Source of the DNA: Komagataella phaffii GS115
Lineage: Eukaryota > Ascomycota > Pichiomycetes > Pichiales > Pichiaceae
Direction of reading: 5' to 3'
DNA: 64,000 bases
Assembly (NCBI RefSeq): GCF_000027005.1
Contig: NC_012966.1
Span: 1,674,001 to 1,738,000, forward strand
A model generated the notes under the pieces. The model saw only the letters and a list, made by a program, of their open reading frames with translations. It was not told the origin of the DNA and made no database searches. Each line of letters begins with the position of its first letter. Positions within the stretch are counted from its first letter, which is position 1. The position numbers were made by a program, and so were the translations under genes. Of the stretch, positions 14,719 to 38,640 are shown piece after piece.

Positions 14719-16557
14719 TTAAGCATTGTAAGAAATAACCTTGGTATTGTTTACTTTCTCTGCGAATCTTAGACTTGTCAACGTCTCGTTGAAGAATAAT
14801 TTATTGGGGTTGACGTTTACAAACATCAATGTCTTACTGCTTGGTTCCAAACTATATTGAAGCAGGTATGTCAATTTGGAGTTCCGATATGGTATATGGT
14901 GGTGGTTTTGGTGTATGGAATGAACGACGTAATTGAGGCAGCTGAGTGACTTATTGATATGTTGGGTCTCCTTAAGACGATCCCCTATCACTTTGGATTG
15001 TGATATCCGCTCGGAGCCAGCAAGATCAATAAGGTGCAAGGTACTTATTAGGCAGTTTGTTTCGCAGCTCCTAAAAACAAATCGAAACACAGTGTGGGAT
15101 CTGGATGATTTTTCGTTTATGTTAGTTGCAGAGGTTCTCTTGTTTTCTTCCGCCTTCAGTAACATCTCCTTTATCTGCTCTTGTGAATTCACAAATATTT
15201 CGTCCATCCCTAAAACCTCGGTTGTACGAGTTGTCTTGTTATGTCTAATCTCATATGGCTTATTTCTCTTGTGTTCAAGAAGATTAAACAATTTGTTATT
15301 GTAAATCTCAATTAACTGAACAAATATGCGAATATCCTTATTTCGTTCATTGAATAGCAAATCCATAGATCGAGAGATCAAGCCATCGTCAATTTTAGAC
15401 ATTGTGAATGATTTCCCGGATCCAGTCTGACCGTAAGCAAAAATTGTAACATTAGTGCCCTCCAAGGCACAATGAATCAGCGGACTGATCTCCCGGAATA
15501 TATCAGTATTGGTACTGAAAGGAGAAAAAACTTTGTCAAAATGAAACGTATATGTCTTTTGTTCCTTGATAACAGATTTTCCAATACGGTTGTTGCCTGT
15601 TGCTCCTGCATAAATGGTGATGCTTTCTTTTAAATTCCATTCCATGTCAGAAATATTAAACCCAATTGATTCTTGTTCATCTGTAACCAAAGGTCTGAGC
15701 CGACAATATACCCTCAGATTTCCCTTTAAGCCTTGAAGCTTATTGTGTAAGTTTCTAGTCTTGAGTTCCTTGTTTTGGAGCAGACGCTGGTGGTTCGCAG
15801 ATGAGGTCCTGACCTCTTGCAAGGAAGATTCAACTATCTGACTATCTTTGATTTCGTTTGCCGATGATTTCTGGGTTTTTCTAGTAATTGTCATTAATTT
15901 TAGTTGTTCTTCTGTATTGCTCTTTTGTTTTTGCATACTCCTATAATCGGACTCCAAAATTTTCCTTTCAGACATTAAACTAGGGCGCTTAACTGATATC
16001 TGGGATAGCTGATTTTCTATGCTACGTTTTCTGAGACCTTGCTTCATAATGAGCAAGCTAAACGTTTTCTGTTGACTCTGATTGGACCTTACAAGGTGTA
16101 CCATACAAGACTCAAAATCCCGAACTTGTTGCGTTAATCTTCTCTCAGACATGGTAGTAATGCCTCTCAATACTAGTTTATTCGCCTTTAAGGTCTCGTG
16201 ACATTCTCTCTCATCTACTGCAAGTTGGCTCAACTTTGTATTGATGATCTTAGTTTTAACATCAATTAGTGATTGTTTCAACATATTTGTTTCCCTCCTG
16301 AAGAGAAGGAAGGCCTCCTTCTGTTGTAAGTGTAATTTGAGTTTGAGGTTCCGTACGAGCTGTCGTCTTGTTTCAAAAACCTTCTCTATTTCACTTTCAT
16401 GCCATAGTGTCCGCTTGTAGAGAGCTTCAAACTCGTCTCTTGTCTTCTCATAGCAGTACCTTAGCTTTGCTCGTTCATTGATGAGTTGCATCAAAGTATC
16501 TTTAGCAAGATGAAATTTTTCATCTTGGCACCAACTTTCCTTTAGTAAATAACTCAT
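14719..16557 (-). CDS. KAR3: kinesin-14 motor Kar3
   Basis: A 612-residue minus-end-directed microtubule motor used in mitotic spindles and karyogamy. The N-terminal ~270 residues are highly charged and coiled-coil-like. The neck LQGLKGNLRVYCRLRPL, typical of C-terminal kinesins, leads into the motor domain. The motor has P-loop FAYGQTGSGKSFTM, switch I NEKSSRSHTVFRF, switch II LIDLAGSERIS, and the microtubule-binding segment HINKSLSCLNYVVHSI followed by HIPYRNSKLTYLLQ. The C-terminal motor position identifies kinesin-14. It is shorter than Saccharomyces Kar3 (729) mainly in the N-terminal tail. It is divergent from RRP15 over a ~165-bp shared promoter. Confidence 0.92.
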   Translation of the reverse strand: MSYLLKESWCQDEKFHLAKDTLMQLINERAKLRYCYEKTRDEFEALYKRTLWHESEIEKVFETRRQLVRNLKLKLHLQQKEAFLLFRRETNMLKQSLIDVKTKIINTKLSQLAVDERECHETLKANKLVLRGITTMSERRLTQQVRDFESCMVHLVRSNQSQQKTFSLLIMKQGLRKRSIENQLSQISVKRPSLMSERKILESDYRSMQKQKSNTEEQLKLMTITRKTQKSSANEIKDSQIVESSLQEVRTSSANHQRLLQNKELKTRNLHNKLQGLKGNLRVYCRLRPLVTDEQESIGFNISDMEWNLKESITIYAGATGNNRIGKSVIKEQKTYTFHFDKVFSPFSTNTDIFREISPLIHCALEGTNVTIFAYGQTGSGKSFTMSKIDDGLISRSMDLLFNERNKDIRIFVQLIEIYNNKLFNLLEHKRNKPYEIRHNKTTRTTEVLGMDEIFVNSQEQIKEMLLKAEENKRTSATNINEKSSRSHTVFRFVFRSCETNCLISTLHLIDLAGSERISQSKVIGDRLKETQHINKSLSCLNYVVHSIHQNHHHIPYRNSKLTYLLQYSLEPSSKTLMFVNVNPNKLFFNETLTSLRFAEKVNNTKVISYNA

Positions 16558-24696: not shown

Positions 24697-26475
24697 CTAG
24701 CTTATCAGAGCACTTAGCCCCACAATAATAAGGTTGCTGATTAAAAAGTTATTGAAGAAGATTTCAAAATTGCTTCTTTTTGTAAAATTTGTGATCATTT
24801 CCGTGTGGATTTCTTTTCTAAAGCTCACCATAGAAGTTATTATCTCTCGAAGGATCGCATCGATGAACTTGTTTGTGTTGGGATTCTGAGTAGCACTGGA
24901 AAGAGCGAGCACTCGTAGGGGATCAATACCCTCCAGCTCGTCTAACTGCCTTACCATCCTAAAGGTTATCACAGGCAAGTGGTCACTCGTATCCACATAA
25001 TGATCCCCAACATTATCCAAGGGTAAATCCATTGGGTCAAAGGATCCTGAGTCTTCTAACTCCTCAATTTTGCTTTGACTGGCAAATTTCTTGCTATTAA
25101 TAAATCTCACTAGCTTACTCAATTCTTCATGTGATATCAATGGAACACCTAGCGAATCATGAGGTAATTCTTGGGGCATAGTGCACTGTAAATCCTGGAA
25201 CGAGACTTTGAAGTCAATTATAGTATACAAAGGTTCACGTTCCTTATCTTCCAAACCTTCATCTGTACTGAATAATCTTTCAATCACTTGTGAGAACGTA
25301 GATGATTCCTGATTGCCAGTAACAGGGGCGCTAGGCAGCGTTACATCTACCAGTAACTCAACCTTCCCACTAGTAACCCAATTAAGCTTTGCGGACTTTG
25401 GCATACCGTTCAGTTCCAATTGATCGACCCTTAATCTTGCCGTTCTTTTCCAAGGATAATCTTCGGCAGTAAACGAAGTATTTCCATCGCCGAAGGTGTT
25501 CCTTAACTGCCGTTCATGAATATTGAACAAAGATTCGTTGATGGACCCGGAGCAGTGGTTAGCGTTCAATAAATCATAAAAAACCCAAAGAGGCCTTAAC
25601 TGATTCAATTCGCAGGAAAAGATAGATACCTTCAAAGACTTGTCGGGTCTGGCCAATACAAGCTCAATTCGTGCATCCTGAATCTTAACCGCATTAAAAG
25701 AATAGTTTCTGACTCTGCTGCGGCCTATTGAAAGCCTTGGTGATAATCCCTCTTCCAAAGAAGAATTGAGATAGGCTTTTCCATTGAGGCCTTTTATATC
25801 TACAGTATCAATCAGACCCCTACCCAGATACCACTTGGTAAACGAAAGAGTTAAACTCAGCGAGTTCACATGGACATCATAAAGTATGTTCTCATTCTTC
25901 TCATCCAAATTACATAGAGTAACATTTTCCAGGATGATTCGGCCATTTTCATATCGTGATTGCATATTACCATTTGAAAGAATCAGCAATTTGGTGTCAT
26001 AATTCAACAAATCTAGCAATATCCTCTTGCTCATTGTGCTGTCGCTAAGCCCAGTGTCTGCTATGTAGAGTAAGAGGCCGACAAAAGTGGTAGTTCCAAT
26101 GACGATCCAAATCAAATTTCCCATCACGACCCAAGAAAATATTGCCGAGAGTTCGTCAATATTATAAGGCCTATTTTGCCTTATGAGAAACCATTTCAAT
26201 CTAATCTTGAGCTTAGACAGAAGCGTAGTCGTATAAAGATACCTTTGGTTCTGATCTCGCTGTCTTCCATAGTACCTGAACGAGCCCTTATTCAGGATAA
26301 TCGATGGGTGGCGCTTATTCAGTACACCAGACAAATATTCATGCTTGGCTTTATATTCAAAGCAGCTTGAAAGTCCCGTACCGTTATAATATCTAAAAAA
26401 TCTCAATGAGTGTTGTACCCTTGGTCGAAAAAACCTACAACCAAAAAGTACTTCCCTATTAACTATACTTGACAT
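24697..26475 (-). CDS. MDM31: mitochondrial inner-membrane protein Mdm31/Mdm32
   Basis: A 592-residue member of the Mdm31/Mdm32 family, inner-membrane proteins needed for mitochondrial shape and lipid homeostasis. A basic presequence (RFFRPRVQHSLRFFRYYNGT) is followed by the conserved RPYNIDELSAIFSWVVMGN and the first membrane span LIWIVIGTTTFVGLLLYIA. The long intermembrane-space domain is beta-rich, resembling AsmA/Vps13-like bridge proteins (VDIKGLNGKAYL). A second span lies at the extreme C-terminus (FLISNLIIVGLSALIS). The start is ATG 26475. Assignment to MDM31 rather than MDM32 is tentative. Confidence 0.8.
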   Translation of the reverse strand: MSSIVNREVLFGCRFFRPRVQHSLRFFRYYNGTGLSSCFEYKAKHEYLSGVLNKRHPSIILNKGSFRYYGRQRDQNQRYLYTTTLLSKLKIRLKWFLIRQNRPYNIDELSAIFSWVVMGNLIWIVIGTTTFVGLLLYIADTGLSDSTMSKRILLDLLNYDTKLLILSNGNMQSRYENGRIILENVTLCNLDEKNENILYDVHVNSLSLTLSFTKWYLGRGLIDTVDIKGLNGKAYLNSSLEEGLSPRLSIGRSRVRNYSFNAVKIQDARIELVLARPDKSLKVSIFSCELNQLRPLWVFYDLLNANHCSGSINESLFNIHERQLRNTFGDGNTSFTAEDYPWKRTARLRVDQLELNGMPKSAKLNWVTSGKVELLVDVTLPSAPVTGNQESSTFSQVIERLFSTDEGLEDKEREPLYTIIDFKVSFQDLQCTMPQELPHDSLGVPLISHEELSKLVRFINSKKFASQSKIEELEDSGSFDPMDLPLDNVGDHYVDTSDHLPVITFRMVRQLDELEGIDPLRVLALSSATQNPNTNKFIDAILREIITSMVSFRKEIHTEMITNFTKRSNFEIFFNNFLISNLIIVGLSALIS

Positions 26476-26763
26476 CAAGTGAAGTAGCTACTTTAAGTTC
26501 TCAAAAATACCTGATACTACCAATCATGAAATAGCACGAGACACTGGAAGTACAGTTAAGCTTTTGTGTACCTTTTCTAGGGAAGGATACTTGCTCTGAG
26601 GCATACGTTTTTTTTAGCTACAAAGTATTATGTAAGCTTTATCACTTACTGTAAATGAGGACATGCATACATTGTATGATTGAATAATATAGGTCATAAT
26701 TACTATATATTACGATGGTAGCTTACCTGCCCTAAAGATTCCTGGTGCAAACTCTGTTTAGTA

Positions 26764-27012
26764 TCATCCACTCACCCGCCAGACTCTCTCCACCAGTTCA
26801 TAGAGTACTCCACTAGTTAATCCAAAAACAAAAGTTTTCAGGTGCTGTGATAAAAGACTCATGGTATTTTCATAGGCCCCTGCACCTACGGTCATTTGAG
26901 AACAAGGACTAGCCGCAAGAAACGATTTCTTGGGAGCTATAGCACATCGGGGTGGTGTAATCGTTCTTTTCTTCTTATTCCATTCAATTTCATCCCGTAC
27001 TCTCTGTTTCAT
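26764..27012 (-). CDS. small hypothetical single-span membrane protein
   Basis: An ATG-initiated 82-codon frame with a charged N-terminus (KQRVRDEIEWNKKKR), two Cys residues near the middle and a C-terminal hydrophobic helix (KTFVFGLTSGVLYELVERVW). The organisation resembles small tail-anchored or inner-membrane proteins, but I do not recognise it. It is the last candidate gene before the centromeric gene desert. It could be a chance frame. Confidence 0.35.
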   Translation of the reverse strand: MKQRVRDEIEWNKKKRTITPPRCAIAPKKSFLAASPCSQMTVGAGAYENTMSLLSQHLKTFVFGLTSGVLYELVERVWRVSG

Positions 27013-27407
27013 CTAGTCAATACAGATTTGAGACGTTAAGGTGGTTCATAGCTTGAGCAATTTCTGCAATACTTGTTTTCCAATTTTTGAAGTCCTTGTT
27101 TTGCAATACATCACAAATTATTTACTTATTTGCAGCGACAACCGTCGCGAGGAAATTGACACAGGTTTGTCACCTCGCTGAGGTATTCCTTCTGCACTGT
27201 TATTCAAAAGTCGACTACAAGATGTTATAAGGGGTGCAAATAATAAAGCATAATCGAAGTAAATGACATTGAATTTTACTCTCAATACATTTTTTTTTAC
27301 CAAATTGAGTTAGTTGGCTGCAGGGAATGAGGCCAAAACGAATGAAAGGTCCATTCATACGAGGAGATGATTGCAAAAAGGTTCGCGCATCATTAACAAA
27401 AATTTTG

Positions 27408-27528
27408 TCAAGGGCCAGATCCAATAGTTAATGCTTGCGTTCTCAGCGCCATGCCGTAACCAACGGAGCCAAAAACCACACCGGCAATCCCCAGCACCGG
27501 ATTCTGCTGGCGTACTTTCTTGAGCAAT
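27408..27528 (-). other. orphan exon-like segment encoding a glycine-rich hydrophobic helix
   Basis: A 39-codon frame reads LLKKVRQQNPVLGIAGVVFG then SVGYGMALRTQALTIGSGP and ends at a TGA (27408-27410). It is more GC-rich than its surroundings and looks like the C-terminus of a small mitochondrial membrane protein. Immediately upstream is an intron-like 3' end: TGATAAC (near 27548-27554) then TAATTAG ending at 27529. There is no in-frame ATG and I found no convincing first exon, so it may be a relic. Family unknown. Confidence 0.3.
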
Positions 27529-27759
27529 CTAATTAGATTTGTACATTGTTATCAAAACAGAACTTCAATTTCGGGTGTGAGAAAGCAAAGTATTCTGTTT
27601 TTTTTCACCTAGAAAATCGATAAGCATCGTATATCGTATCAAATGGTGTTAGGCGACAGGATGATCAACGCCACTGAAGAGATGAAGAATAAGGATGTAT
27701 TTTTTTATGTACATTTTGGTCCAGGAAGCCTAATGTGAGATGCTGGAACTGTGGTTCTA

Positions 27760-28530
27760 CTTCAACCATTATCTCTCCTTACCTGATCTCTCAACTGGTG
27801 TGTGGGGAAAAACAACACTACTATTAATGCAACTTTCAGTAAGATATTTTTCTGGATTAAGGGAGATTTCAAGTCAATTCCAGATCCTGGCTTTGCAACC
27901 TTCGGAAATGATTGCAAAGTATAGTCTTTTTCCTTCCAGTTACGGTGGCCTTGCAGCATTGACCAGTGGTCCCCTTATGCAGATCATAACGTTTCTGTCG
28001 TTTCGGGCAGAGAGAATGTTTCTACTATCTGTCGTTACGTGCATACTCAAAACGAAACCTCGGTTTTTGGTTTTGTTGGAAGAAGTTTACTGATATCTAG
28101 GGATCAAGATTTTACAATGCTAGCCCAAATCCGAAACGAATAGTTTCACCGTCTGGAGGGAAGATTCCCAAGTAAAACGGGCCTTTTGTCCATTTTCTCT
28201 AATTCCTTTGGAATCTATACGATCCACTAAAAGAATCCAGCGTTGCTATCCCACATTCTAACAGCTGCGTCAAGTGACACAGTCGCAGTTACGTTTCCGT
28301 CTGGGAAAGCTACGGCTACCGGCCGCGAGTCCATTTTTGATTAATAATGTCAACATACACTGTGAAGAAATCAGGTCTAGATTTGGAAAGATCTGTCTTC
28401 CAAACCAGCGCTAATCCAGTTCCATTGGGGAAAAGCAGGTAGCCCTAATACGCAAGGGACCATTATCTGATTCATAACTGCTATTTACGTTGTCTCTGGA
28501 GTCATCCCACAGCCTAACCAGAAGTTCTCT
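27760..28530 (-). pseudogene. decayed WD40-repeat gene
   Basis: Several WD40 blade remnants lie on the minus strand in different frames, separated by stops. At 28411-28521 the reading is LVRLWDDSRD...IRATCFSPMELD then a stop. At 28227-28319 it is VAVAFPDGNVTATVSLDAAV followed by RMWDSNAGFF and a stop. Near 28145-28190 it is IFPPDGETIRFGFG. At about 27880-27959 it is LQGHRNWKEKDYTLQSFPK. These match the blade consensus (GH...V..aFSPDG..vaS.S.D..VRLWD) of multi-repeat WD40 proteins of the HET-E/NLR type. No start codon or intact blade series remains. Confidence 0.65.
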
Positions 28531-29495
28531 AGTCTGGACATCAGACATCTGAGTCAGTCAATTGCAACTGTTAGTTGAAACCTGCCATCAGAACCGGCAT
28601 GAACCCACTAAACTCCTAACGCTGGCAGATAGAAGGAACGTACCATCTCGACTTCTGTCTCATTCGCTAATCAAGGTTATATGTAGCACGTAATTTGCAA
28701 TGGCTTTGTCTCTTGTCTCTAAAACGCTAAACACGCATTAAAACTCCCTAAACATGCAAATAAAGGTGGTAGCGGGCCGCAGCTACAAAGTTTCACCTAC
28801 TTTCCTCCTGGCTGTTGTTCAGAGTACCGAGCGTTGAAATTTGGAGTGGCAACGATTGGAGATAGAGGATCCATTTTCCAGCTCTACTTACCTCAGTTGT
28901 AGCTACATGTGGCTACCAGGTTTTTCCTGGTCCTGTTTCATGAAGTATTTCCTTTGGTAAGCTATTCTCGTCATTTTAATAGCTAAACTAAATTCTTTGA
29001 ACCGGATTTCGCATTTTTAGGAGGCTTCTGTCATCTGTGTACACCTAATAGCCAGTAACTCAGAGCCCACACTTACCGATTCACTGATTTTTGCCTTAAC
29101 TTTGCCCAACACCGTACTCAGTTGAAGACGATAATTTGCGCCTTGCGCTGTTAGTTGAAATCCGCAAGGATAAAAGAGCTACAAAGGGTACGAGCGTACG
29201 TGCCATCGTTTATTGCTGCTTAACTTTTAAATTTAGTTTTATTCACTGCAGGAATGATTGAAATTAGATAGATACCTTGTCACATTAAGATGAAACTACC
29301 AATTGGAACTCTCATAAAACGATTTACCCTTATGTCTCAATCAAGAAAACATGACATAACAAACACAACAAACGCACCGTCTTGTTCAAAGTTAGCAACA
29401 TAATCTTGGTTTAGTTTCTTGTTTGGCATTATGCGAAAAGAATAGGACAATTCATTTTTTCCCTGTACCCTTTGAAGAGACCACACCAATAACAA

Positions 29496-32055
29496 AAAGC
29501 GCATTTCGCGAAGTGTCACTTGATAGATATAACCTAAAACGTCAAACTATTAAATCCTCATAAGCGAACCCAATCATTCTGGTTGACAGGCATAATGGTG
29601 TTCCATTCTTCTTTCATAGAGGCTCTATTCAATTGACGTTCACAAAGAANAAGCAAGTGCCAATTAGTCCAAATACAAAACGAAGTTTTGTTAAAACTTT
29701 CAATAGCACGGATAAGTGGTTACATAAATTTTTGGTATTTCAAACCTGCGGCATTTGATCTCACATAGAACAACTAAAGGACCACGCTATCTTCGGCAAC
29801 CATCGGAAACTTAGAATGAGGAGCATGTTTGAGTAAATGAAACATACTCAACAGTGAACACAATAGGATGCATTTAAGATTACATGATCATTAGTGGATT
29901 ACTTAAGAACATCTTCAGCATTCACTAGGAAAATATTTTATATTCAAAGAAGAGTTTGTCAGCCTACGATGACTCTCATTAGTGAGACGACTAAAGTCAT
30001 TAATAAATTTCAGTGACTTAAACCAATACGTATACAATCAGGTCAAAACATATTAATAGAAAAAGGGTAGACTCGGTCACTCTTGCTAAAAACCAGAAGG
30101 AGTACTAAAGCTCAACATACATAGTAAGTAAATTAAGATCAAAATGAAACTGGCTACTTGAATACAGAGCTGGGAAAACGCATAACGTTTATAAATGTAT
30201 TAAATATGAGATGGTAGAGTTCTGTTTGATTAAAACCGCTGAAAATAGTTGCTTACCAAGTGGCTAGATCTGGACGGTTAAGAAAGTAGCTGCTGTTGTA
30301 CAAAAATCCAAACGTTGGTGATCAGAGCAAGGACTATTATGCTGATGTAATAGAATGCAATGCTTGTAGTCAATATTTGTTCATACCTGACATAAAAGTA
30401 CTTTCCAAGAAAACTGGTCAGTTACAAATAATAAGATTAGACCGGTGAGTGACTTAGCACATTCTAGGCAAAAATGAACTGTGGGATGCTTGCCACTAAC
30501 TATAATACTATACTGTAAAAATAACTGTTCAAAAAGGACACTTATCGGTTCGTAAGTAGATGACAGGAAAATAAGGGGCCATCAAACAATAGATATTGAA
30601 GGCTAGCATATTGGTAGTTGTTCCTGTAAGATTAATGTTTTTTTGGGGAGCTAGTTCATCATAAAACAGGGCAAAGGCCAGGAATCAATCAATTCACATT
30701 AGAACTTGGTTGATAACAAGGGCTCCCACAATTAATCGTCTAAGCGATTCTCAGCGGCTTGTAAGCATTACAGCGAGGTTAAACTTTAGATGAAAGGATC
30801 ATTATTCTTTGAGCGTGTTACCATTATCAGGGTAGTAGGATTGAACAGAATTATGCTTGCTAAACACAGATCTCAATCCAGCGAATACCATGATATGCTC
30901 AAAGAGTTAATCTACCCATGACCCAAGCTCAGTATACGGTGAGTATTCGGGGGCGCGCAAGTAGTTTCCTTCATTCCACTACATTTCGATACGTGTTAAA
31001 TCTAATTGTATTCTTGAAAAGAAAGCTTGGACGAGGTCATCAGAGCATCTTACTACTACGTGATGATAGACACAGAGTTGGGTTACTTTTTTAAAAAAGG
31101 GTTGACATCTATGTTTGAACTCATTTCAGTCAAGTAATCATCTGAGACCATACACCTGCATCAACTACACATTCCAGCAAATATCAGCTTTTCCAAACGG
31201 AGAATGTAGCAAAGTCAACAAAATGAAAATCGACGACCGCAGGATGGACACATCTGGAGCTTTCCAGAATATCAAGTATCAAGTGGAGCGGTGAACGAAA
31301 AATCCAACTACCCTATCCTCATTTAAAACTCTCAAGAAAAGTGATCTCTCAGTTCGGTAATCGGAATATTAAAAGATTTCAACATAAAAGAAAGAAACTA
31401 CCTCGAAACGAATATGTACAAGCATTGCATAACAATTCAAGTTTTCAAACTAGAAAAAAAATTCCTATCTTGTAGTCCCCTTAATCACTTTTGAGAAATA
31501 GAATGGGAGCAGGCAACACGAGGCATGAGTTCTTTGCTTTTAACCAAAACTTACAGAAGAATCTTTACACGTTTGGTAGGCAACAAAACTATACCGGAGC
31601 TCAGTTTGCACCAGGCAAATGCTCCAAAAGTATGAAGCTACGAGAATCAAATCGTCAGACTAATCAAGATAGGTCTTGCATTCTTGATACCGATACTTAT
31701 CCATCCCTCATCAATGCCTTCGCCTGTCTACAGCTATTGATCATATTGAGAAATTTGGTACAAGGCTTTTAGGAACGTTTCACAACTGTCAGCAGCATGA
31801 TGTCCTCTAAAAACTTCTTAATCCATATATAATCAGACAAAGCGTGACTAATCTGTACTACCTCTGTATGTGTGGTCATTCTCTTTACGATTCGTAAAAC
31901 ACTACAGCCTTCTTTGCAAAGCTAGAATAGCACATACCTAATTGAGTCCATTGCGACAGTAGGCACGAAAATCCCCTTTCTATCTAACGTCGCTCTAGCG
32001 CAACTACCGTCTTTCAGAAGAAAAAGAAAATCACAGCCAATTTATGAAAGCAATC
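29496..32055 (+). repeat. centromeric inverted repeat, left arm
   Basis: Aligns with the reverse complement of 33167-35725. Paired positions sum to 65222 from the inner end out to about 29635. There an extra T in the left arm (CAATTGACG versus CAATGACG) shifts the sum to 65221 to the outer end. An ambiguous base (n) at 29650 pairs with C at 35572, so it should read G. Inner ends share TTATGAAAGCAATC, and outer ends share AAAGCGCATTTCGCGAAG. Confidence 0.95.
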
Positions 32056-33166
32056 TAAGCTTCCTATCAAAATGATCATAGCTTATGTGGCAACAGAACT
32101 TACTTAGTTTTTAATGCTGGATGCTGTTTGCCCCGTTAATGGAATCTGTGGTTAGACTAATCTTTTCAAGCCATAAGACAGTTATCATTAGAACGAATAA
32201 ATACTAGTCTTCTAAATATACGTTTTGTTTAGCTATTTCACGAAAGTATTCATTAGGGATAGGACTTCCCAAAGCTATACCATTTGAAAAAATGATGCGC
32301 TTAGATTCGCTCGAATGCTGAATGAAAGTCATGAAACTCCCAACTTCATTGTAGTGCCAGAGAGTACCCAGCATGCGGTTTAAAAACAGCTCTTTTGCAA
32401 GAGCCATCTGCTGCTGAAGGTTCAAAATACCTTAAACGAGATTGTTAACAAAGTACAACTTATACATCATGACCTCTAAGCTAATAACTCGGAGAAGCTC
32501 AAGTTGGCCCAAATGTGTGACAAATCAGTCACGATCCAAAACTATCAGCTTTCAAAGTTCATGGTATTATTGTTTTCTTGTAAGTTGGCTGAATTTAAGT
32601 TTGGTATTCTGCTGAAAATCAAGATTTGACTTAGATACCTATCAACAACTGGCAATGATTCTTGTTTTTGTGCTATGAATCAGAAAGCATTAAACAAGGC
32701 GTAACCTCAAGAATCGTACTGGCACCTATGCAAATGATTTGGTGACAACATCCCATCTCACGAGCTTGAGCATTGATAATGCAGGTAACACTATTGCTGA
32801 ACAATTACGTCGTCTCTATTTAATATCATGGCCTTGTCAGCATCAAGCAATACATGTAGTAATTTTGGCGCCTGAGATGCTGTGCATTTTCAACGCTTGA
32901 ACATTGCTAATTTAAAAGCTAGGATTTAGTTAAAGTAGAATATGGGTAAGAATATTTTGTAAACCGGTATCCGACATTCGGTGCTGAAGTACACAGAGTT
33001 AGGTACCAGGAGTTACTTTGCCCATAGTGCGATTTTTCTCAACAATTGGGTGTACCTGTCTAGAAAATAGTCAAGAAAGCAATGAGCTGTAAGTCTTAAA
33101 TTGCAGATTATCGAGAGTATATGCAACTTTGGTCCTGAGGTCCTGATTCTTATGATGAAATGCTTG
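32056..33166. other. unique core of the inverted-repeat centromere
   Basis: 1111 bp between the arms. No credible gene: the longest frame (32204-32425, minus, 73 codons) has no recognisable content. AT-rich overall. This is where the centromeric nucleosomes would be expected to centre. Confidence 0.8.
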
Positions 33167-35725
33167 GATTGCTTTCATAAATTGGCTGTGATTTTCTTTT
33201 TCTTCTGAAAGACGGTAGTTGCGCTAGAGCGACGTTAGATAGAAAGGGGATTTTCGTGCCTACTGTCGCAATGGACTCAATTAGGTATGTGCTATTCTAG
33301 CTTTGCAAAGAAGGCTGTAGTGTTTTACGAATCGTAAAGAGAATGACCACACATACAGAGGTAGTACAGATTAGTCACGCTTTGTCTGATTATATATGGA
33401 TTAAGAAGTTTTTAGAGGACATCATGCTGCTGACAGTTGTGAAACGTTCCTAAAAGCCTTGTACCAAATTTCTCAATATGATCAATAGCTGTAGACAGGC
33501 GAAGGCATTGATGAGGGATGGATAAGTATCGGTATCAAGAATGCAAGACCTATCTTGATTAGTCTGACGATTTGATTCTCGTAGCTTCATACTTTTGGAG
33601 CATTTGCCTGGTGCAAACTGAGCTCCGGTATAGTTTTGTTGCCTACCAAACGTGTAAAGATTCTTCTGTAAGTTTTGGTTAAAAGCAAAGAACTCATGCC
33701 TCGTGTTGCCTGCTCCCATTCTATTTCTCAAAAGTGATTAAGGGGACTACAAGATAGGAATTTTTTTTCTAGTTTGAAAACTTGAATTGTTATGCAATGC
33801 TTGTACATATTCGTTTCGAGGTAGTTTCTTTCTTTTATGTTGAAATCTTTTAATATTCCGATTACCGAACTGAGAGATCACTTTTCTTGAGAGTTTTAAA
33901 TGAGGATAGGGTAGTTGGATTTTTCGTTCACCGCTCCACTTGATACTTGATATTCTGGAAAGCTCCAGATGTGTCCATCCTGCGGTCGTCGATTTTCATT
34001 TTGTTGACTTTGCTACATTCTCCGTTTGGAAAAGCTGATATTTGCTGGAATGTGTAGTTGATGCAGGTGTATGGTCTCAGATGATTACTTGACTGAAATG
34101 AGTTCAAACATAGATGTCAACCCTTTTTTAAAAAAGTAACCCAACTCTGTGTCTATCATCACGTAGTAGTAAGATGCTCTGATGACCTCGTCCAAGCTTT
34201 CTTTTCAAGAATACAATTAGATTTAACACGTATCGAAATGTAGTGGAATGAAGGAAACTACTTGCGCGCCCCCGAATACTCACCGTATACTGAGCTTGGG
34301 TCATGGGTAGATTAACTCTTTGAGCATATCATGGTATTCGCTGGATTGAGATCTGTGTTTAGCAAGCATAATTCTGTTCAATCCTACTACCCTGATAATG
34401 GTAACACGCTCAAAGAATAATGATCCTTTCATCTAAAGTTTAACCTCGCTGTAATGCTTACAAGCCGCTGAGAATCGCTTAGACGATTAATTGTGGGAGC
34501 CCTTGTTATCAACCAAGTTCTAATGTGAATTGATTGATTCCTGGCCTTTGCCCTGTTTTATGATGAACTAGCTCCCCAAAAAAACATTAATCTTACAGGA
34601 ACAACTACCAATATGCTAGCCTTCAATATCTATTGTTTGATGGCCCCTTATTTTCCTGTCATCTACTTACGAACCGATAAGTGTCCTTTTTGAACAGTTA
34701 TTTTTACAGTATAGTATTATAGTTAGTGGCAAGCATCCCACAGTTCATTTTTGCCTAGAATGTGCTAAGTCACTCACCGGTCTAATCTTATTATTTGTAA
34801 CTGACCAGTTTTCTTGGAAAGTACTTTTATGTCAGGTATGAACAAATATTGACTACAAGCATTGCATTCTATTACATCAGCATAATAGTCCTTGCTCTGA
34901 TCACCAACGTTTGGATTTTTGTACAACAGCAGCTACTTTCTTAACCGTCCAGATCTAGCCACTTGGTAAGCAACTATTTTCAGCGGTTTTAATCAAACAG
35001 AACTCTACCATCTCATATTTAATACATTTATAAACGTTATGCGTTTTCCCAGCTCTGTATTCAAGTAGCCAGTTTCATTTTGATCTTAATTTACTTACTA
35101 TGTATGTTGAGCTTTAGTACTCCTTCTGGTTTTTAGCAAGAGTGACCGAGTCTACCCTTTTTCTATTAATATGTTTTGACCTGATTGTATACGTATTGGT
35201 TTAAGTCACTGAAATTTATTAATGACTTTAGTCGTCTCACTAATGAGAGTCATCGTAGGCTGACAAACTCTTCTTTGAATATAAAATATTTTCCTAGTGA
35301 ATGCTGAAGATGTTCTTAAGTAATCCACTAATGATCATGTAATCTTAAATGCATCCTATTGTGTTCACTGTTGAGTATGTTTCATTTACTCAAACATGCT
35401 CCTCATTCTAAGTTTCCGATGGTTGCCGAAGATAGCGTGGTCCTTTAGTTGTTCTATGTGAGATCAAATGCCGCAGGTTTGAAATACCAAAAATTTATGT
35501 AACCACTTATCCGTGCTATTGAAAGTTTTAACAAAACTTCGTTTTGTATTTGGACTAATTGGCACTTGCTTCTTCTTTGTGAACGTCATTGAATAGAGCC
35601 TCTATGAAAGAAGAATGGAACACCATTATGCCTGTCAACCAGAATGATTGGGTTCGCTTATGAGGATTTAATAGTTTGACGTTTTAGGTTATATCTATCA
35701 AGTGACACTTCGCGAAATGCGCTTT
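33167..35725 (-). repeat. centromeric inverted repeat, right arm
   Basis: Mirror copy of the left arm. Blocks compared by eye include 33220-33330, 34060-34250 and 35560-35720; all are identical except one single-base indel and the n. The mirrored 93-codon frame (33450-33731) is the same sequence as 31491-31772 and is not treated as a gene. Confidence 0.95.
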
Positions 35726-38070
35726 GCCCAATTGGTGAAGATTATGTTTTTGGTTAATCCTTTTCTCGGCTTCTCGTTAAGGTGTTCACTTCCTTTTTTT
35801 GGAATGTTTGTAAAGGATAGAATTTAACTTGATACTCCGGATACTTTCGGAACCTTGTTGTAATCAATATTCAATCTAATCACTTTTTAGGAATCACTTG
35901 TAGCTATGATAGTCTTATGTTGTCCCTAATCTTGATGAGCTGCTCGTCTACATCAATTTGGTGGGGGCTTGGAATGTTTTCAAAGCTGTTATGCAAACCC
36001 GTTGATGGCCTCTGAACCACTGGAATTGAAAGAATTAATGTCCTATGATTTAATATCAGCATAGATGCAACCATAATCTGGATGTTATCGCCCCTCGATC
36101 TAAACATTCTGGGTACGCTCAGCGATATTTTTGCACCATCTTTAGGGTAGCATCTAACTGGACCCTACCCTCAGTACTGTGAGCGTCGGTAAAATAGAAG
36201 CTTTGACTGCTTAGTATTCCTCCCTCATCCTATCGTTTGAATTTTTCTAACAAGACCTCCTAGATATAGATTTTCATAGCATAAAAATTGTTGGTCTCTT
36301 ATCAGATGACTCGATTTATCTTGTTGCCTGTTGGGCGACCTTTTTTTCTACTGCATGGAGTGAAAGTAATTGAATAAAGTCGATTTTCGGGAGCGTGAAC
36401 TTATTGAGTATCTAGAAGAATATCGCCGCAAAATGTATATTGCATCTACGAAGTAGAATTTCATGCAGTCAATTTAAGAAATTTCATCTACCATGTGTAA
36501 GATATGCTTTTCTAGCACCAGTTCGGTAACATGTTAGATTTGCATTATTAGCTCTTCACTTTCTACGTTCTGCAAAAGCAAGCAACTTATGTATTGAAGC
36601 CTACTAGAATCTGAACATAAATCCATCAGACCATCCTTTGACAATTCGGACATTTGGATTCAGAGAGCAGGATTACAGTGAATATAGTTCTCACTGTTGA
36701 CTAGTTTATCATACGTCTATGAATATACGCAGGGCTGGGCAGAACTACAAAGTGTCCGACAAAAATGCTGTTTATTGTTTATTTGCTGCCCATTACGGTT
36801 AATCTCGACAACCTTAAGATTTTGTGGACGTCTCAGTTGTCCCCAGGCCCCGTTTTGCTAGTAATGGCCCCTTAGACGGTATAATGGCTAATGGGGATAA
36901 GATATAAACTACCGGCAATGCTAAAAACCACTTCATCTTTATAAGATAAGGCCGCTATTCATTCACGTATTGTCTTTATTGGAGAGCTTGAGTGTATGCA
37001 CAAAATCATAAAGATTCAAACTTGATTCAAAAGAAATGGAACTGGGGAGGGAATGAACCATCCGCTTCTGAATTCATTTTGAAACCAATTACATATTCTT
37101 CTACAGAGCCAAATTTATGGGTCATCAGTATGAGTAACACATCTCGCTTTTAGGATTAAAACAGAGTTGAAGTAAAGGGACTAATCACTTGATAATTATT
37201 CATTTGGAACATGTAGCAAACATTGATCGCTGCAGCTAAACTTTAGTCAGGTTGTATGGTGATGGATGGTCTTAGCCGCCAAAGATAATATTCTGGTACT
37301 GTAAAGTTCAAGGTTCTGCTAACTTGTCCTGCAAGCCATATCTTGCTAAAGGATGTTGTTTGAAAGTAGAACTAGCGCTTTATTACATCTCTTTTAGTAA
37401 AGTTGAACTAAGGCACATCCACCACTGGCTTCCAAGAATGTCTGCAAACTCAAAAAACTTTCTGTTTGGAAAACATAAATTACCCAAGATACAATAGCTT
37501 ATAATTTGGACTAGATTGGAAGCTACTGGCAAAATAATTGCCCTCCTGTCTTGCTTATGTGTGCCCTCTTTGTTAGTCATTAGGCTATTAGGTTCAGATA
37601 AAACTCCATCTATACCAGTCACCTCATTTTACTCCAGAAATAAGTAATAATACTCTAAATTTCAAGTACCCAAGTTAGAAAGTAAGTAAGTAAGAAAGCA
37701 AGTTTCCCCTTGTCTTTTTATGTTCTATAATTGCACGGTATTGCGAAACACCAAAGTTTATCTCCTTACAAGATCACTTGTATTCGTTTGGTTAATCCTA
37801 GATGAATCTTTTTAAGGCATCCCAGCCTCTCTTATAATTTCATTTTCCCTGAAAGAAGGATACAGAGTAGATAGAAGTATATTCTCACCTTGCAATAGGA
37901 GCGAGCCTCAAACAAACTTACTACACAATGCTTACGGCATAAGGTCGTGCCCGACAAAAATAATGACGCGAAAACATGTTGCCATCCATATAATGATCGG
38001 CAAAAAAAAACTTGACAATGCCACCTACTTGAATTAATCTTTCCATTGATTTCCAGGTTACCATTCGAAT
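35726..38070. other. right pericentromeric flank and PHO88 upstream region
   Basis: About 2.3 kb without an intact gene. Short frames at 35904-36107, 37383-37622 and 37832-38104 (all minus) have no recognisable domains. The last ~300 bp must include the PHO88 promoter. No repeat shared with the left flank was noticed. Confidence 0.6.
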
Positions 38071-38640
38071 ATGAATCCGGCTGTTTCCAATATAGTTTTG
38101 TCACTTGTTATGATGCAAGTGTCTCGCCAGCTGGACTTTGAGAACGAGTCAGTAGTATTTTATGTGAGGGCGGCATATGTGACAACAACTTTGATCGTCC
38201 TGGGAACGTACCTGTTCGTAAGACTGAAAATCCAGTCAAAGAACGATTTAACAACCCTCAAGTACGTTGAGCCTGCTAACCCCCTTTCGGGTCAAAGTGA
38301 GGAGCAACTACAAATCACGACGGTAAAGGATTACGATTTGAAACAGGCCAACAGCGCCATTCGCAGTGTCTTCACTGGTGTTGCAATGATGGGTTTCATG
38401 CATTTATATATGAAATTTACAAACCCGCTGGTGATGCAAAGTGTTTCCCCTTTAAAAAGTCTTTTTGAGAATAAAATAATTCAAATCCATTTATTAAACA
38501 AGCCAGCCGTAGGCGACCTTAAAAGACCTTTCAAAGCTGCTCCCGGACTTTTTGGCCAAGGTGCTACTGATATAAAGACCGATAAGCAGTCAATTGATAA
38601 GGCTGAAGTTAGTGGTAGAGGAGGCTTAAAAGAGGAGTGA
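38071..38640 (+). CDS. PHO88: Pho88/SND3 ER membrane protein
   Basis: A 189-residue ER membrane protein, first linked to phosphate transport. It is now also known as Snd3, part of the SRP-independent targeting route. N-terminal MNPAVSNIVLSLVMMQVSRQ and span YVTTTLIVLGTYLFVRLKIQ are typical, as is DYDLKQANSAIRSVFTGVAM followed by MGFMHLYMKFTNPLVMQS. The length matches Saccharomyces Pho88 (188). First gene right of the centromere. Confidence 0.95.
   Translation: MNPAVSNIVLSLVMMQVSRQLDFENESVVFYVRAAYVTTTLIVLGTYLFVRLKIQSKNDLTTLKYVEPANPLSGQSEEQLQITTVKDYDLKQANSAIRSVFTGVAMMGFMHLYMKFTNPLVMQSVSPLKSLFENKIIQIHLLNKPAVGDLKRPFKAAPGLFGQGATDIKTDKQSIDKAEVSGRGGLKEE

What the first reader, a model, noticed from the sequence alone, without database searches (positions are those of the whole stretch)
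29496..35725. Large inverted repeat with unique core, a probable centromere
Two ~2.56 kb arms mirror each other around a 1111-bp core in an ~11 kb stretch with no intact gene. Paired coordinates sum to a constant (65222, then 65221 after one indel), so this is one intact palindromic structure and not scattered repeats. Komagataella centromeres are established to be simple inverted repeats; the assignment here is inference from shape.
Basis: partly seen in the sequence, partly recalled or inferred. Interest (0 to 1): 0.85.

Follow-up and report, generated by a model that had tools for sequence, protein, structure and literature searches.

The report
Known yeast centromere, Komagataella chromosome 4

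Summary
Two 2.56 kb arms (29496-32055, 33167-35725) mirror each other around a 1111 bp core (32056-33166). The arms differ by a one-base indel and one N. They lie in 11.6 kb where no ATG ORF exceeds 117 aa and none of 11 ORFs tried matched Pfam. The centromere reading is also right, and in print. PMC7332064 cloned K. phaffii CEN4, giving its place as GS115 chromosome 4, 1703369-1709958. With the window at C4:1674001-1738000 that is window 29369-35958. All 4 CEN4 primers match the window perfectly, the outer two exactly at those ends. At the published places on the other three contigs the genome has inverted repeats of the same design but unrelated sequence. Papers report Cse4 binding strongest in the core, and that a CEN4 plasmid is more stable and at lower copy number than an ARS-only plasmid. 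I could not test Cse4 binding, transcription or Hi-C, and the primary paper (Coughlan et al. 2016) is not held. Verdict: already known, low interest.

The parts
29496..32055 (+). left arm of the CEN4 inverted repeat, 2560 bp
   Evidence: self-BLAST and base-by-base alignment
32056..33166 (.). unique core (mid) of CEN4, 1111 bp; papers place the strongest Cse4 signal in the core
   Evidence: arm boundary by alignment; Cse4 statement from passages of PMC8709784 and PMC7829337
33167..35725 (-). right arm of the CEN4 inverted repeat, 2559 bp
   Evidence: self-BLAST and base-by-base alignment
29369..35958 (.). segment published as the K. phaffii CEN4 amplicon (GS115 chromosome 4, 1703369-1709958; plasmid pPICH-CEN4)
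   Evidence: primers Cen4-F and Cen4-R match exactly at the two ends, Cen4c-F and Cen4c-R in the core; coordinates in PMC7332064, converted
29466..30103 (.). published AT-type ARS core (GS115 chr4 1703466-1704103), outer end of the left arm
   Evidence: coordinates in PMC7332064, converted; activity not tested here
35118..36114 (.). published AT-type ARS core (GS115 chr4 1709118-1710114), outer end of the right arm plus unique flank
   Evidence: coordinates in PMC7332064, converted; activity not tested here
26476..38070 (.). gene-poor stretch holding the centromere; longest ATG ORF 117 aa
   Evidence: 11 ORFs or frames tried against Pfam, 0 with a match (1, 10)
24697..26475 (-). left flanking gene, MDM31/MDM32 family
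   Evidence: PF08118, E 1.9e-76
38071..38640 (+). right flanking gene, Pho88 family
   Evidence: PF10032, E 3e-80

Best explanation
This is centromere 4 (CEN4) of Komagataella phaffii GS115, a small regional centromere with inverted-repeat structure. The unique 1.1 kb core carries most of the centromeric histone Cse4 (CENP-A), with less along the two arms; the kinetochore assembles there and segregates chromosome 4. The near identity of the arms is best explained by recombination or gene conversion between them, which can also flip the core. Shown here: the anatomy and the coincidence with the published locus. Reported in papers: Cse4 binding, lack of transcription, early replication, polymorphic core orientation and plasmid stabilisation. 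Inferred: kinetochore assembly at this very place, and how the arms stay alike and what they contribute.
For: Coincidence with the published CEN4 coordinates and perfect matches of 4 of 4 CEN4 primers; 0 of the 12 CEN1-3 primers match the window. The sister loci lie at the published coordinates on C1, C2 and C3 (6 of 6 outer primers exact), each an inverted repeat with arms of about 2.0, 2.7 and 2.65 kb at 99.8-99.9% identity and cores of 1316, 1199 and 883 bp by BLAST ends. No blastn hit at E 1e-2 in 6 of 6 pairs between the four, and no word of 10 bases is shared by all four, in line with the published statement that they are unrelated in sequence. [quoted passage not shown] Papers report Cse4 ChIP signal strongest in the core.
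Against: Nothing that speaks against the identity. Two loose ends: (1) PMC6894112 speaks of untranscribed regions of 6-9 kb around the centromeres, while the ORF-poor gap here is 11.6 kb, so part of the gap may be transcribed. (2) The same paper gives the CEN4 midpoint as 61,908 in another reference assembly, while here it is 71,685 bases from the C4 end, a difference of 9.8 kb; CEN2 (847,025 against 847,809) and CEN3 (37,477 against 37,576), counted from the contig end, and CEN1 (1,404,200 against 1,404,539), counted from the start, agree within 1 kb. A different assembly of an invertible chromosome end may explain this; I did not test it. Cse4 ChIP-seq, Hi-C and RNA-seq data were not examined, and the primary paper is not held.
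Confidence: 0.98

Rival explanations
1. The inverted repeat is one of the mating-type switching repeats of chromosome 4, not a centromere.
For: K. phaffii switches mating type by recombination between inverted repeats on chromosome 4 (PMC8709784 passages), and the window appears to lie in that region: a MATalpha HMG-box match sits at C4:1649126-1649347, and the contig end (1778074-1778296) is an inverted 97% match to a piece about 6 kb beyond it.
Against: By the review the MAT repeats contain genes (DIC1; SLA2, SUI1, CWC25) and the two loci lie about 135 kb apart. The arms here hold no ATG ORF above 89 aa, enclose 1.1 kb and sit at the published CEN4 coordinates. I did not search the arms for those four genes by name.
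Confidence: 0.01
2. Assembly artefact: a palindromic misjoin or a duplicated copy of one arm.
For: The arms are almost identical, and their only two differences, an indel and an N, lie 17 bases apart.
Against: The outer flanks of the two arms differ. PMC7332064 amplified CEN4 in two halves with primers in unique flank and core, then assembled and cloned it. The published places on the other three chromosomes have the same design with unrelated sequence.
Confidence: 0.01

Closest known systems
Komagataella phaffii CEN4 (Coughlan et al. 2016, not held, known through papers that cite it; coordinates in Piva et al. 2020, PMC7332064)
   Same: The same coordinates in the same reference: both ends of the published amplicon and both inner primers match exactly.
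   Different: No difference found; only the primer sites and coordinates could be compared, not a published sequence of the whole segment.
K. phaffii CEN1, CEN2, CEN3
   Same: An inverted repeat with arms of 2.0-2.7 kb and a core of 0.9-1.3 kb at each published place.
   Different: Sequence unrelated to CEN4; different arm and core lengths.
Inverted-repeat centromeres of Candida tropicalis, Candida parapsilosis and Pichia kudriavzevii (passages of PMC12711049)
   Same: A kilobase-scale inverted repeat at the centromere.
   Different: By that paper those of C. tropicalis and P. kudriavzevii are homogenised between chromosomes, those of K. phaffii are not. No sequence of these species was compared here.

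Membership tests
K. phaffii inverted-repeat centromere (CEN4) | position equals the published locus | tested here: met
   published amplicon chr4 1703369-1709958 = window 29369-35958; 4 of 4 CEN4 primers match perfectly
K. phaffii inverted-repeat centromere (CEN4) | two near-identical arms of about 2-2.7 kb around a unique core of about 1 kb | tested here: met
   2560 and 2559 bp arms, 1111 bp core
K. phaffii inverted-repeat centromere (CEN4) | lies in a gap without transcription | tested here: inconclusive
   no ATG ORF above 117 aa in 26476-38070, 0 of 11 ORFs tried with a Pfam match; transcription not tested; papers give 6-9 kb untranscribed
K. phaffii inverted-repeat centromere (CEN4) | one such structure per chromosome, unrelated in sequence | tested here: inconclusive
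   one at each published place on C1, C2, C3, C4, no cross-similarity in 6 of 6 pairs; the CEN4 arm has no third copy among the scored candidates; contigs were not scanned end to end for extra inverted repeats
K. phaffii inverted-repeat centromere (CEN4) | Cse4 (CENP-A) bound, strongest in the core | not testable with these tools
   reported by PMC7332064, PMC8709784 and PMC7829337, citing earlier work
K. phaffii inverted-repeat centromere (CEN4) | confers mitotic stability and low copy number on a plasmid | not testable with these tools
   reported for pPICH-CEN4 in PMC7332064
MAT switching inverted repeat | repeats contain DIC1 or SLA2/SUI1/CWC25, with the two MAT loci about 135 kb apart | tested here: not met
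   no ATG ORF above 89 aa in the structure, repeats 1.1 kb apart; definition; the named genes were not searched

The most novel reading that the evidence does not exclude
The mirror arrangement of CEN4 may serve to place two equal replication origins (the published ARS cores at the outer arm ends, 29466-30103 and 35118-36114) so that forks converge on the Cse4 core from both sides. The palindrome would then be a replication-timing device rather than a recombination relic. Against its generality, the paper that lists these ARS cores says that CEN1 has none inside its cloned segment and that the stability of the CEN1, CEN2 and CEN4 plasmids was comparable.
Probability: 0.04. Interest if true: 0.45.

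Novelty: already known. Interest (0 to 1): 0.08.

Why it matters
As a finding it confirms a published locus. It is a useful positive control: a reader without tools drew the boundaries to the base (arms, core, indel) and the right function from raw sequence. The open question, why several yeasts keep unrelated but near-perfect inverted repeats at their centromeres, is not moved by this window.

Tried and rejected
Novel-element reading: rejected once the published CEN4 primers and coordinates matched. MAT switching repeat: rejected on position and content. Assembly artefact: thought unlikely because of the differing outer flanks and the published cloning in two halves.

A motif shared by the four centromeres: none found. 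The words shared by all four (7-mers 325, 8-mers 26, 9-mers 2, 10- to 12-mers 0) lie within the range of 30 Markov-resampled controls (means 303, 24.6, 1.07, then 0.03 or less). This used one arm plus core per centromere and exact words only, so a degenerate motif is not excluded.

Structural RNA or tRNA in the gap: none. The only Rfam match at gathering score and the only ARAGORN gene in the window is a tRNA-His at 2142-2213.

Direct comparison of C4:1628000-1657999 with C4:1748000-1777999 in 10-kb pieces (9 pairs) gave no hit. A genome search then found an inverted match in the last 223 bases of C4, just beyond those pieces (1 of 2 candidates scored).

Full report
Observation. Self-BLAST of the window returns one inverted pair, 29496-32078 against 35725-33144. 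Aligned base by base, the eight substitutions all fall between 32056 and 32074, so I end the arms before them: 29496-32055 (2560 bp) and 33167-35725 (2559 bp), with a core of 1111 bp at 32056-33166. The only differences within the arms are a one-base T indel near 29633 and an N at 29650 opposite a G. An equality test printed False because the slices were of unequal length; the corrected test is. A simple estimate for random sequence gives a longest perfect inverted repeat of about 16 bp in 64 kb. GC content is unremarkable: arms 0.37, core about 0.38 (measured on 32079-33143), window 0.397.

Surroundings. The flanking ORFs are an MDM31/MDM32-family gene ending at 26475 (- strand) and a Pho88-family gene starting at 38071 (+ strand). 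The 11,595 bp between them hold no ATG ORF above 117 aa. That ORF and 10 further frames of 63-95 aa have no Pfam match; most of the shorter frames listed were not tried. Rfam and ARAGORN find nothing there.

Identity. The window is C4:1674001-1738000 of a 9,216,378-base, four-contig genome. PMC7332064 (text parts 1-3 of 5 read) cloned K. phaffii centromeres with primers designed on GS115 and gives the regions as chr1 1401429-1406917, chr2 1543739-1550657, chr3 2204800-2211493 and chr4 1703369-1709958. All 4 CEN4 primers match the window perfectly: Cen4-F at 29369-29388, Cen4-R at 35939-35958, Cen4c-F at 32707-32727 and Cen4c-R at 32748-32768, the last two inside the core. None of the 12 CEN1-3 primers has an exact match in the window. 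The published chr4 coordinates convert to window 29369-35958. The outer primers for CEN1-3 (6 of 6) fall exactly at the published ends on C1, C2 and C3. Of the six inner CEN1-3 primers, three were searched genome-wide and each matched once; the other three were not searched outside the window. The genome is therefore K. phaffii GS115, or a sequence with the same coordinates at these four places.

Sister loci. Each of the three other places is an inverted repeat: CEN1 C1:1401524-1406876, arms about 2.02 kb, core 1316 bp; CEN2 C2:1543811-1550465, arms 2.73 kb, core 1199 bp; CEN3 C3:2204861-2211042, arms 2.65 kb, core 883 bp (BLAST ends, not refined). The four are unrelated: 6 of 6 pairs gave no blastn hit at E 1e-2, and no exact 10-base word occurs in all four.

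Function, from papers. PMC8709784 and PMC7829337 (passages) and PMC7332064 state, citing earlier work, that Cse4 binds most strongly to the core and less along the repeats. PMC8709784 adds that the regions are untranscribed and replicate early, and both reviews say that core orientation varies between isolates. [quoted passage not shown] their transformation efficiency was lower, and CEN3 could not be cloned. The strains used there derive from X-33, so the cloned segment need not be identical to this window at every base. The paper lists AT-type ARS cores at chr4 1703466-1704103 and 1709118-1710114, that is, window 29466-30103 and 35118-36114. The inner ends of the two are mirror positions to within one base (30103+35118 = 65221), as expected if they come from sequence shared by both arms. 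The authors call the role of these ARS cores in plasmid stability unclear.

Chromosome context. [quoted passage not shown] In this genome a MATalpha HMG-box match lies at C4:1649126-1649347, left of the window, and the last 223 bases of C4 are an inverted 97% match to C4:1655112-1655334. So the window appears to lie inside that region, and the contig appears to stop within the second repeat; this is inference.

Loose ends. PMC6894112 gives untranscribed regions of 6-9 kb, smaller than the 11.6 kb ORF-poor gap here. Its CEN4 midpoint in another assembly, 61,908, differs by 9.8 kb from the 71,685 bases between the CEN4 midpoint and the C4 end here, whereas CEN1-3 agree within 1 kb. I did not resolve either.

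Verdict. I tested no chromatin data, the primary paper is not held, and contigs were not scanned end to end.

Noticed in passing
29650 and about 29633: The only N in the window and the only indel between the arms lie 17 bases apart in the left arm, so the arms of the real chromosome may be fully identical there.
   Followed up: partly
G000:C4:1778074-1778296 and C4:1655112-1655334 (outside the window): The contig ends inside an inverted 97% match to a stretch about 6 kb beyond the MATalpha HMG-box match, which suggests that the assembly stops in the second MAT repeat and lacks the chromosome end.
   Followed up: partly
G000:C4 end: The CEN4 midpoint is 71,685 bases from the contig end, against 61,908 given for another assembly; the other three centromeres agree within 1 kb.
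   Followed up: partly
27740-28093: A 117 aa ORF in the left part of the gene-poor stretch, without Pfam match; probably not a gene.
   Followed up: partly
L010 (C3:2203000-2212999): The authors of PMC7332064 could not clone CEN3 and suspected repetitive motifs unlike those of the other centromeres; I did not look for them.
   Followed up: no
14719-16557: A kinesin-motor gene (PF00225) with a microtubule-binding domain lies about 13 kb from the centromere; no link is claimed.
   Followed up: no
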